From the NCBI GenBank assembly GCA_027079305.1, contig JALWVU010000055.1, forward strand, positions 62,001 through 126,000: 64,000 bases of DNA. The letters run 5' to 3'. The stretch comes from Aquificaceae bacterium (GTDB lineage Bacteria > Aquificota > Aquificia > Aquificales > Aquificaceae). Under the pieces are notes generated by a model. It was given only the letters and a program-made list of their open reading frames with translations, was not told the DNA's origin and made no database searches. Below are positions 27,827 through 30,276 of the stretch, in pieces. Numbering within the stretch: position 1 is the first letter of the stretch; the number at the start of each line of letters is the position of its first letter. Both the position numbers and the translations under genes were made by a program.

Positions 27827-28351
27827 TCACGTTAAAAGTTTCAGAACCTCCTCATCCATCCCCTCCCTGTTGCTTCTCTTAAGCTCTATGAGAACCGCTC
27901 CGGGAAGCCTTCTCAGTTCCTTTACTATAGGGTGGACGTCCCTTATTGGAAGCGTCGCGAGGAGTCTGAGCTTAGGATCGTAGGCTATCTCTCTGACGAG
28001 ATCCCTGAACCTCTTTGAGAAGAGCTCCATCTTCCCTATCTCGTCTATGACGATGACTTTGCCTTTCCCTTCCCTGAGGGCTCTTTCGAGGAGGGGTAAG
28101 GCCACCTCTTCAAATCTCTGAACGTTCACCCCGTAGGACCCGACCAGATGCTTTGAGGTGAAGGTTTTGCTCGCAAAGAGCTTCTCTTTGCCGTCGGTGT
28201 TTACCACCTTAAATCCTTTTCTCTTCCCGGTCTTCTTATCCCTTACCTCCTCCGTCCAGAAGCCGATAGCCCTGTCACCGAGTTTCTCCACGACCTTTTT
28301 AACCAGTGTAGTCTTCCCGACACCCGGTTCTCCCGTTATAAAGATCTTCAT
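27827..28351 (-). CDS. Nucleoside-triphosphatase of the THEP1 family
   Basis: A 174-residue P-loop NTPase like the Aquifex THEP1 of known structure. Walker A GEPGVGKTT (7-15), Walker B VIVIDEIGKMELF (about 96-108), and the family tail LATLPIRDVHPIVKEL are present. THEP1 slowly hydrolyses several NTPs; its role is uncertain. Its ribosome binding site AAGGAGG lies in an 11-bp sequence that also occurs at the coaE 3' end, on the other side of an inserted TnpB element. This indicates that coaE and this gene used to overlap. Confidence 0.93.
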   Translation of the reverse strand: MKIFITGEPGVGKTTLVKKVVEKLGDRAIGFWTEEVRDKKTGKRKGFKVVNTDGKEKLFASKTFTSKHLVGSYGVNVQRFEEVALPLLERALREGKGKVIVIDEIGKMELFSKRFRDLVREIAYDPKLRLLATLPIRDVHPIVKELRRLPGAVLIELKRSNREGMDEEVLKLLT

Positions 28352-28362
28352 GGATCCTCCTT
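28352..28362. repeat. 11-bp direct repeat, THEP1 side of the TnpB element
   Basis: GGATCCTCCTT (minus strand AAGGAGGATCC) directly precedes the THEP1 start codon and supplies its ribosome binding site. The identical 11 bases occur at 29679-29689 in the coaE 3' end, so the copies flank the TnpB element. IS200/IS605 insertion normally makes no target duplication. Confidence 0.85.
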
Positions 28363-28434
28363 GCTGTCGGGGCCCCCTTCCGTAATTAAGTGGAAGAGAG
28401 CGCTTTTGAAAGTTTGCAAGTATTTAAGTAATAT

Positions 28435-29637
28435 ATGAATATGAAACTCCAACGAACCCTTAAACTCGTCCTCAAACCTACAAAAGAGCAGAAACAGATA
28501 CTTCTTGAGACCATTGAGCAATACAAGTTTGCCTACAATTACATCTGCAAAGTCGGTTGGGAAGCTGAACTTTGGAATAGTATTGAACTCCACAAACTCA
28601 CTTACCGCACAGTCAAGGATAAAACCTTTCTTCCTGCTCAACTCGTTATCTCCGCAAGGGTTGTGGCTACAGAAAGCCTCAAGTCCGCCATAAAGAGAAA
28701 GGGAAAAGGACTCAAAAGCAAATGCCCTCAGAGCAACAATCCTGCCATACGTTACGATAAACGTTCTTATACAGTTTGGCTGGATAGAGAGGAAGTTTCC
28801 CTTACCACTATCAAGGGAAGACAGAGGTTCAAGATAAAAGTTCCTGAATACTTCAAGCAATACCTTGACTGGAAGCTTACATCCGCAAACCTCAAATACG
28901 ACAAGAAGCTTAAGAAGTTCTTCCTTCACGTAACCGTAGAAAAGGATGTTTCCGAGATAGAAACCAAAGACTTCTTCGTAGGAGTTGACCTTGGACTCCG
29001 TAAGCTTGCTGTAGTTTCTACCTCTGATGGAAAGATAAACAAGTTCTTTGATGGAGGGCATGTGAGGGCTGTATCTGAGAGGTATCAAGCTCTTAGAAAG
29101 CGTCTGCAGTCCAAAGGCACCCCCTCTGTCAAAAGGCATCTCAAGAAGCTCTCGCGGAAGGAGAAACGGTTTCGGACTGCAATCAACCATAAGGTGGCAA
29201 AGGATATAGTAGAGCTCGTTCCTGCTGGCGGTGTGATAATTCTTGAGAAGCTTAAGGGGATAAGGGGGAGAATAAAAGCAGGTAAGCAAAACAGGAAGTG
29301 GATACACAGCTGGAACTTTGCTCAGCTCCAGAGGTTTATAGAATATAAAGCACGGGCTAAAGGTATAAAGGTAGTCTATATAGATGCACACTATACATCT
29401 CAGAGGTGTAGCAGGTGTGGGCACATATCCAGAAGGAACAGGAAGGACCAGGCGCACTTTGTGTGTGAGGTGTGCGGTTTTCAGCTCAACGCAGATCTGA
29501 ATGCCAGCAGGAATATAGTTAAGAACTATCTGGCTTCCCTTGAAGGGAAGTCGGGGCACGGAGAGGCAGGTCCCTCCGTGTGGGGCGTGGTCAATCGTCC
29601 CTATGTAGGGAGTGTTGGCTGTGCTGTGCATGGCTAA
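28435..29637 (+). CDS. tnpB: TnpB RNA-guided nuclease (IS605 OrfB)
   Basis: A 400-residue intact TnpB. N-terminal wedge and REC region (about 1-175), then split RuvC: GVDLGLRKLAVVS (Asp185), IILEKLKGIR (Glu271) and ADLNASRNI (Asp354). A zinc ribbon lies between the last two (Cys325/Cys328 and Cys344/Cys347). All three catalytic residues are present. TnpB cuts DNA next to a short target-adjacent motif guided by an RNA transcribed from the element's right end, helping the element to persist after excision. The 3' part of the gene overlaps several hairpins that would form this RNA. Codon use is more A-rich than neighbours, consistent with transfer. Confidence 0.95.
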   Translation: MNMKLQRTLKLVLKPTKEQKQILLETIEQYKFAYNYICKVGWEAELWNSIELHKLTYRTVKDKTFLPAQLVISARVVATESLKSAIKRKGKGLKSKCPQSNNPAIRYDKRSYTVWLDREEVSLTTIKGRQRFKIKVPEYFKQYLDWKLTSANLKYDKKLKKFFLHVTVEKDVSEIETKDFFVGVDLGLRKLAVVSTSDGKINKFFDGGHVRAVSERYQALRKRLQSKGTPSVKRHLKKLSRKEKRFRTAINHKVAKDIVELVPAGGVIILEKLKGIRGRIKAGKQNRKWIHSWNFAQLQRFIEYKARAKGIKVVYIDAHYTSQRCSRCGHISRRNRKDQAHFVCEVCGFQLNADLNASRNIVKNYLASLEGKSGHGEAGPSVWGVVNRPYVGSVGCAVHG

Positions 29638-29678
29638 CCTCACCTACAAGCTCCTCCTGTCAGGGAGGAGTAGTTGAC
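29521..29678 (+). ncRNA. Candidate omegaRNA (guide RNA) scaffold of TnpB
   Basis: The end of tnpB and the right end contain four hairpins in a row: CTTCCC/GGGAAG (29534-29550), CACGGAG/CTCCGTG (29557-29580), TCCCTA/TAGGGA (29598-29611) and CTCCTCC/GGAGGAG (29651-29670). In known TnpB systems the RNA covers this region and its guide is the sequence just after the right end. Here that would begin with the 11-bp repeat GGATCCTCCTT at 29679 and continue into coaE. Boundaries are inferred. Confidence 0.55.
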
Positions 29679-30265
29679 GGATCCTCCTTTATACGTCTAA
29701 ACACCTCTTCTACCTGCTTCCTCGTTCTTTCTATCCCATCCGAGTTATCTATCACAAAGTCCGCGAACTTAACCTTCTCCTCTATCGGCATCTGCTTCCT
29801 CCACCTCCTCTCAAAGTCCTCCTCCGAAAAGCCCCTCCTCAGTGCCCTTTCCTTGCACACCTCGTAGGGAGCGTAGACCACCACGGTCTTGTCGTAGTTC
29901 CTGTAGGTTCCCTTTTCGATCAACAAACTTGCCTCCACGACCGCAACCGCATCTTCGGGAAGTCTGGAAAACTCCTCCTCGAGGTATTCGTAAAGGGCCC
30001 TGTGTGTTATCTCCTCGAGCTTCTTCAGTTTTCTTTCATCTCCGAAGACCACATCAGCGAGCTTCCTCCTGTCCACGTTCCCTTCCTCATCCAGGATTCC
30101 CTTCCCGAAGGCTTTCACAACCTCGTCCCTGACGGGGTGATCCTTCATGTAGAAGGAGTGTATTATCCGGTCCGCGTCAAACACGTAAGCACCCAGCTCG
30201 CTGAATATCCTGCCCACGGTGGACTTACCACAGCCGATGTTCCCCGTGAGGCCTATTCTCTTCAC
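29660..30265 (-). CDS. coaE: Dephospho-CoA kinase, with C-terminus altered by insertion
   Basis: About 201 residues; the last step of CoA synthesis, phosphorylating the 3' hydroxyl of dephospho-CoA. P-loop GLTGNIGCGKST near the start, FDADRIIHSF, the CoA-binding region PEDAVAVVEASLLIE, YNYDKTVVVYAP-like core and RRGFSEEDFERRWRKQMP lid. GTG 30265 is chosen because VKRIGLTGN matches family starts; ATG 30292 is an alternative and would overlap the divergent aroD start. The last residues STTPP come from the inserted TnpB element, replacing an inferred stop right after RIKEDP. Function should be unaffected, as the tail is outside the fold. Confidence 0.92.
   Translation of the reverse strand: MKRIGLTGNIGCGKSTVGRIFSELGAYVFDADRIIHSFYMKDHPVRDEVVKAFGKGILDEEGNVDRRKLADVVFGDERKLKKLEEITHRALYEYLEEEFSRLPEDAVAVVEASLLIEKGTYRNYDKTVVVYAPYEVCKERALRRGFSEEDFERRWRKQMPIEEKVKFADFVIDNSDGIERTRKQVEEVFRRIKEDPSTTPP
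29679..29689. repeat. 11-bp direct repeat, coaE side of the TnpB element
   Basis: Second copy of GGATCCTCCTT, inside the last codons of coaE. On the minus strand the coaE codons ATA AAG GAG GAT CC would continue as CCA TGA if joined to the THEP1 start, giving an ATGA overlap in the ancestor. Confidence 0.85.
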
Positions 30266-30276
30266 TTTGGTGATTA

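What the first reader, a model, noticed from the sequence alone, without database searches (positions are those of the whole stretch)
28351..29690. TnpB element inserted exactly at the overlapping coaE/THEP1 junction, with an 11-bp repeat that rebuilds the THEP1 ribosome binding site
The 11 bases GGATCCTCCTT occur once right before the THEP1 start (28352-28362) and once in the coaE 3' codons (29679-29689), flanking the element. If the element is removed between the two copies, coaE would read ...RIKEDP then CCA TGA, so the stop overlaps the THEP1 ATG (ATGA), with AAGGAGG as its ribosome binding site. The element thus separated two coupled genes yet kept both working: coaE gained STTPP from element sequence and THEP1 kept its own Shine-Dalgarno copy. 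IS200/IS605 transposition normally creates no target duplication, so the repeat is unexpected. It might be a repair-linked duplication, or a copy selected after insertion.
Basis: partly seen in the sequence, partly recalled or inferred. Interest (0 to 1): 0.75.

Follow-up and report, generated by a model that had tools for sequence, protein, structure and literature searches.

The report
Transposon ends carrying translation start signals
A small TnpB-type jumping element split two overlapping genes of a heat-loving bacterium, and comparison with 23 sister copies suggests that these elements land just in front of gene start codons and carry their own ribosome-binding sequence at the landing edge, so the gene they sit on can probably still be made.

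Summary
Observation confirmed: GGATCCTCCTT lies at 28352-28362 and 29679-29689, flanking a tnpB element in an Aquificaceae coaE-THEP1 pair. Seven relatives have the predicted empty site with coaE stop and THEP1 start overlapping (NTGA).

The repeat is not a target duplication. In 23 further copies from three Aquificota families the element starts directly after HTCAT (TTCAT in 21 of the 24), and in Aquificaceae its own end is CTTTTTCCTCCTT or close to it. So 8 of the 11 bases are element sequence; only GGA and a 2-bp shorter spacer are special to this copy. The other 20 copies with both flanks show no repeat.

What this reveals is more general. TTCAT is the reverse complement of ATGAA, and the left end read outward is a Shine-Dalgarno (AAGGAGG or GGAGGT, usually 5-7 nt before that ATG). 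In 19 of 24 copies the ATG starts an intact gene, including the only full-length MurE of its genome, EngB, and THEP1 twice. The right end also supplies a stop codon in the ATGA frame. Thus the element probably re-supplies the translation signals it separates. Start-codon targeting is not shown: about 61% of non-disruptive ATGAA sites are start-like anyway. No expression was measured.

The parts
27827..28351 (-). THEP1-type NTPase gene, start codon at 28351-28349
   Evidence: PF03266 and NF010248; N-terminus matches empty-site relatives
28347..28351 (+). TTCAT target / presumed TAM; reverse complement ATGAA contains the THEP1 start codon
   Evidence: HTCAT precedes the left end in all 24 copies, TTCAT in 21
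28352..28362 (+). left copy of the 11-bp repeat; bottom strand AAGGAGGATCC = Shine-Dalgarno before THEP1; TCCTCCTT is the family's own left end, GGA is special to this copy
28363..28406 (+). left-end hairpin region; partly decayed here compared with the family (GCGGTC...GACCGC stem disrupted)
   Evidence: alignment to a family sequence; folds
28435..29637 (+). tnpB, 400 aa, intact, RuvC/TNB motifs present
   Evidence: PF07282, PF01385, NF040570; dN/dS 0.10-0.14 against three related copies
29651..29670 (+). right-end hairpin CTCCTCCTGTCAGGGAGGAG
   Evidence: sequence; conserved in copies
29660..29678 (-). right-end sequence read as coaE tail STTPP plus TGA stop in the ATGA-overlap frame
29674..29678 (+). 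TTGAC right terminus of the element
   Evidence: same terminus in nearly all copies
29679..29689 (+). right copy of the repeat = native target, 3' coaE codons and native THEP1 Shine-Dalgarno; also the first 11 nt of the predicted TnpB guide
   Evidence: matches empty-site relatives
29660..30274 (-). coaE, dephospho-CoA kinase (start codon not settled)
   Evidence: PF01121, TIGR00152

Best explanation
A TnpB-only element of the IS200/IS605 kind inserted after TTCAT at the overlapping coaE stop / THEP1 start. Its left end, read outward on the bottom strand, is a built-in Shine-Dalgarno placed to serve the ATG that the TTCAT target always contains. Its right end supplies an early stop for the upstream gene. 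It therefore re-supplies the translation signals it separates. The 11-bp repeat arises because two Shine-Dalgarno sequences, the element's (TCCTCCTT on top) and THEP1's native one, already share 7-8 bases. The extra GGA and shorter spacer were acquired afterwards, perhaps by copying from an empty site (for example repair of a TnpB cut on an excised sister, switching template at CCTCCTT), or by mutation. Shown: boundaries, empty sites, conserved motif and spacing, flanking gene starts. Inferred: that the motif drives translation, and the route of the GGA change.
For: Boundaries from other copies: HTCAT, then the left end, then ...TTGAC. Outward match of at least 6 nt to the Shine-Dalgarno consensus in 20 of 24 copies, 4-7 nt from ATG, against 3 of 21 native leaders with 5 nt or more. 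Spacer sequence differs between families (AAAAAG, TAAATT, TTTCT) while GGAGG and spacing stay. 19 of 24 outward ATGs begin intact ORFs, among them MurE (no other full-length copy in its genome), EngB/YsxC, ThiO, YifB, DeoC, Hsp33, encapsulin, and THEP1 in two families. The two weakest motifs (L155, L201) sit where no gene starts. Ten distant TnpB elements from plasmids and phages and two viral ones show no such motif next to the target, so it does not look like a general need of these ends. Right-end stop in the ATGA frame in nearly all distinct ends of the group, by TGA or TAA. No direct repeats in the other copies with both flanks. tnpB under purifying selection.
Against: Once internal sites are set aside, 61% of ATGAA sites are start-like, so 19 of 24 is only weakly enriched (P = 0.05); loss of gene-disrupting insertions could explain the sites. 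Five copies are not at gene starts. The copies are related, so motif conservation is not independent. CCTCC could have a DNA-structural role at the left end. Predicted Shine-Dalgarno accessibility is mixed. Transcription of the downstream gene is untested. The right-end stop lies in a hairpin loop that is also common in distant elements, so it may be structural. Left ends of the distant elements were placed by eye.
Confidence: 0.7

Rival explanations
1. The left-end motif CCTCC is a structural part of the transposon end (transposase or guide pairing) with no role in translation; insertions are seen at gene starts only because insertions inside genes are lost.
For: 61% of non-disruptive ATGAA sites are start-like; copies L156, L157 and L194 keep the motif without a gene start; a GGAGG on the other side of the hairpin could pair with CCTCC (sequences).
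Against: Ten distant elements and two viral ones lack the motif at this place; the window keeps it although its hairpin has partly decayed; insertion separates native leaders from genes such as murE, which then need some new initiation signal.
Confidence: 0.22
2. The 11-bp repeat is a duplication of target DNA made at insertion or by repair, unrelated to the element's own end.
For: Exact 11-bp identity in register at both edges.
Against: Eight of the 11 bases are present at the left end of sister copies at unrelated sites; the other copies have a 0-1 bp common prefix.
Confidence: 0.05
3. The GGA and the 2-bp shorter spacer are ordinary mutations, kept or favoured because they suit THEP1 translation, not copied from an empty site (compatible with the main explanation).
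For: The left end of this copy carries many other substitutions; spacer length varies among copies (L144, L226).
Against: Matching the three native bases by chance is about 1 in 64, less with the matching spacing; no other copy shows it.
Confidence: 0.4

Closest known systems
ISDra2 and other IS200/IS605 elements with TnpB (Karvelis et al. 2021, PMC8612924)
   Same: Inserts 3' of a fixed pentanucleotide without target duplication, hairpin ends, RuvC TnpB, right flank as the presumed guide.
   Different: Target HTCAT/TTCAT instead of TTGAT; no Y1 transposase found in this genome; left end carries an outward Shine-Dalgarno matched to the ATG in the target.
IS elements that activate neighbours through outward or fusion promoters (e.g. 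IS5 and fucAO, PMC11894529, abstract)
   Same: An insertion supplies an expression signal to the next gene.
   Different: Here the signal is for translation, in register with the start codon in the target motif, and appears in most copies of the family.
Bacterial group I introns (PMC3984707, abstract; IStrons from memory)
   Same: A mobile element that limits the damage of its insertion.
   Different: By RNA splicing there; here by re-supplied initiation and stop signals. No Rfam match in the element region.
TldR, RNA-guided transcription factors related to TnpB (PMC13418256, abstract; loss of nuclease activity from memory)
   Same: TnpB homologue close to a host gene.
   Different: RuvC motifs are present here and tnpB sits in an element with both ends.

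Membership tests
IS200/IS605 (TnpB-only, IS1341-like) element | TnpB protein with RuvC and zinc-finger motifs | tested here: met
   PF07282, PF01385, NF040570; GVDLG 183, ILEKL 269, NADLNA 352, CxxC pairs
IS200/IS605 (TnpB-only, IS1341-like) element | Fixed short target motif directly 5' of the left end | tested here: met
   TTCAT in 21 of 24, ATCAT or CTCAT in 3
IS200/IS605 (TnpB-only, IS1341-like) element | No target site duplication | tested here: met
   0-1 bp common prefix in the other copies with both flanks; the window's 11 bp are mostly element sequence
IS200/IS605 (TnpB-only, IS1341-like) element | Subterminal hairpins at both ends | tested here: met
   Present in the family; left hairpin partly decayed in the window
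IS200/IS605 (TnpB-only, IS1341-like) element | Y1 transposase tnpA in the element or genome (not required for the TnpB-only subtype) | tested here: not met
   No PF01797 match in the own genome; PMC8612924 notes isolated tnpB genes as one configuration, so the claim is limited to a TnpB-only element
IS200/IS605 (TnpB-only, IS1341-like) element | reRNA-guided cleavage next to the target motif | not testable with these tools
   needs biochemistry
TldR repressor | loss of RuvC catalytic residues | tested here: not met
   motifs present
IStron (group I intron plus IS605) | group I intron sequence in the element | tested here: not met
   no Rfam match at E<=0.1 in 28200-29900

The most novel reading that the evidence does not exclude
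The family is adapted at both ends to be silent at operon junctions: target motif = start codon, left end = Shine-Dalgarno, right end = stop in the -4 overlap frame. In this copy, conversion of the left end also gave the element's own guide an 11-nt match next to the TAM at its left edge, which might let TnpB bind there and affect THEP1 or the element itself.
Probability: 0.3. Interest if true: 0.8.

Novelty: new variant of a known kind. Interest (0 to 1): 0.62.

Why it matters
TnpB elements are among the most abundant mobile genes and are held to be ancestors of Cas12, yet how they persist in compact, operon-rich genomes is little understood. A target motif that doubles as a start codon, paired with an end that doubles as a ribosome binding site, would be a simple way to survive inside operons, and can be tested with one reporter experiment. 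It also warns that flanking repeats of such elements may be shared function, not target duplication.

Tried and rejected
Target site duplication as the source of the repeat: rejected by sister copies. Active choice of start codons: not supported once internal sites are excluded. Y1 transposase in the own genome: none. Known RNA family in the element: none. Generality beyond Aquificota: ten distant elements (plasmids, phages) and two viral ones showed no built-in Shine-Dalgarno next to the target; Gloeobacter and Nitrosophilus plasmid copies have an annotated gene start with a GGAG-like motif near the left end, but their boundaries are unclear. Paper searches for earlier descriptions found none; the library is open-access only.

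Full report
Observation. The 11-mer GGATCCTCCTT is present exactly as described. The element lies in an Aquificaceae genome (G000, contig 55) as a single copy; no Y1 transposase was found in that genome. Upstream and downstream genes are coaE and a THEP1-type NTPase.

Empty site. Seven relatives without the element (L019, L020, L021, L022, L023, L025, L051) have coaE ending in ...DP* with its TGA overlapping the THEP1 start (ATGA, TTGA or GTGA) and a purine-rich, mostly GGAGG-like site just before it.

The left end in other copies. In 24 copies the element starts directly after HTCAT (TTCAT in 21) and, where the right end is held, ends in TTGAC or a close variant. The Aquificaceae left end is typically CTTTTTCCTCCTTGCGGTC; the window has GGATCCTCCTTGCTGTC, i.e. 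a 2-bp deletion and TTT to GGA, with TCCTCCTT unchanged. So 8 of the 11 repeated bases belong to the element. In the other copies with both flanks, the left end and right flank share a prefix of 0 or 1 base: there is no target duplication.

Outward Shine-Dalgarno. TTCAT read on the other strand is ATGAA. Read outward, the left ends give AAGGAGG-AAAAAG-ATGAA (Aquificaceae, G122), GGAGG-TAAATT-ATGAA (Hydrogenothermaceae) and GGAGG-TTTCT-ATGAA (G132). A match of at least 6 nt to the Shine-Dalgarno consensus exists in 20 of 24 copies; at least 5 nt is found in only 3 of 21 native leaders. The spacer bases change between families while the motif and its distance stay.

Flanking genes. In 19 of 24 copies the ATG at the edge opens an ORF of at least 60 aa and, where both flanks are known, an in-frame stop lies at most 31 codons upstream in the rebuilt empty site. 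Named by profile: MurE, EngB/YsxC, ThiO, YifB, DUF167, encapsulin, nitrite/sulfite reductase-like, DeoC, Hsp33, a Mop-domain protein, and THEP1 twice with unrelated right flanks. MurE has no other full-length copy in its genome. Background: 12-17% of ATGAA sites meet the same rule (binomial P about 4e-11). However, among sites that do not lie inside a gene the figure is 61% (P = 0.05). The sites are thus explained by TTCAT plus loss of harmful insertions, with start sites survivable because the element brings an initiation signal; no active targeting of start codons is shown.

Right end. Read from the upstream gene, the right end gives a stop after STTxx in the frame of an ATGA overlap in nearly all distinct right ends of the Aquificota group, by TGA or TAA. 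Four copies sit at such overlaps (window, L152, L200, L202). Many distant elements share a CTTTAG loop that gives a stop in this frame, with exceptions, so this may be structural and is only suggestive.

Controls. Distant TnpB elements from Thermus, Allomeiothermus, Halolamina, Parageobacillus, Deinococcus, Streptomyces, two methanogens, a Thermus phage and a Lactobacillus phage and two viral contigs show no such motif beside the target. One 33%-identical element (L228, G026) has AACCTCC after ATCAT and lies inside a Y1 tnpA-like gene (the tnpA reading rests on its sequence, recalled, not on a profile search).

How the 11 bases may have come about. Seven to eight bases were shared from the start because both sequences are Shine-Dalgarno sites. 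The remaining GGA and the shorter spacer match the native site. Karvelis et al. (PMC8612924) show cutting 15-21 bp from the TAM and propose repair of the empty donor joint from the sister copy. A cut end TTCATGGATCCTCCTT could anneal at CCTCCTT of the element's left end and be extended into the element, leaving GGAT in place of CTTTTT. This is inference from one case; plain mutation is nearly as likely.

State of the element. tnpB is intact, with RuvC motifs and dN/dS of 0.10-0.14, while the left hairpin is partly decayed. No mobility or expression was tested.

Noticed in passing
L142, L151, L152, L153, L154, L155, L158 (279-290 bp elements): Short derivatives keep both ends and the conserved right-end region but lack tnpB; they may be served by a TnpB in trans.
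   Followed up: partly
L228 around the left end (G026:C1, about 750 kb): A distant TnpB element (33% identity) interrupts a Y1 tnpA-like gene at an internal ATGA site and has AACCTCC next to it.
   Followed up: partly
28409-28437: Promoter-like TTGAAA - 17 nt - TAATAT lies directly before the tnpB start, so its message may have almost no leader.
   Followed up: no
G000:C20:3238-3924 (L189): A second, distant TnpB (31% identity) in the same genome; its ends were not examined.
   Followed up: no
L202 and window: THEP1 start codon hit in two families by elements about 69% identical with unrelated right flanks; by a rough estimate not surprising given about 20 copies.
   Followed up: partly
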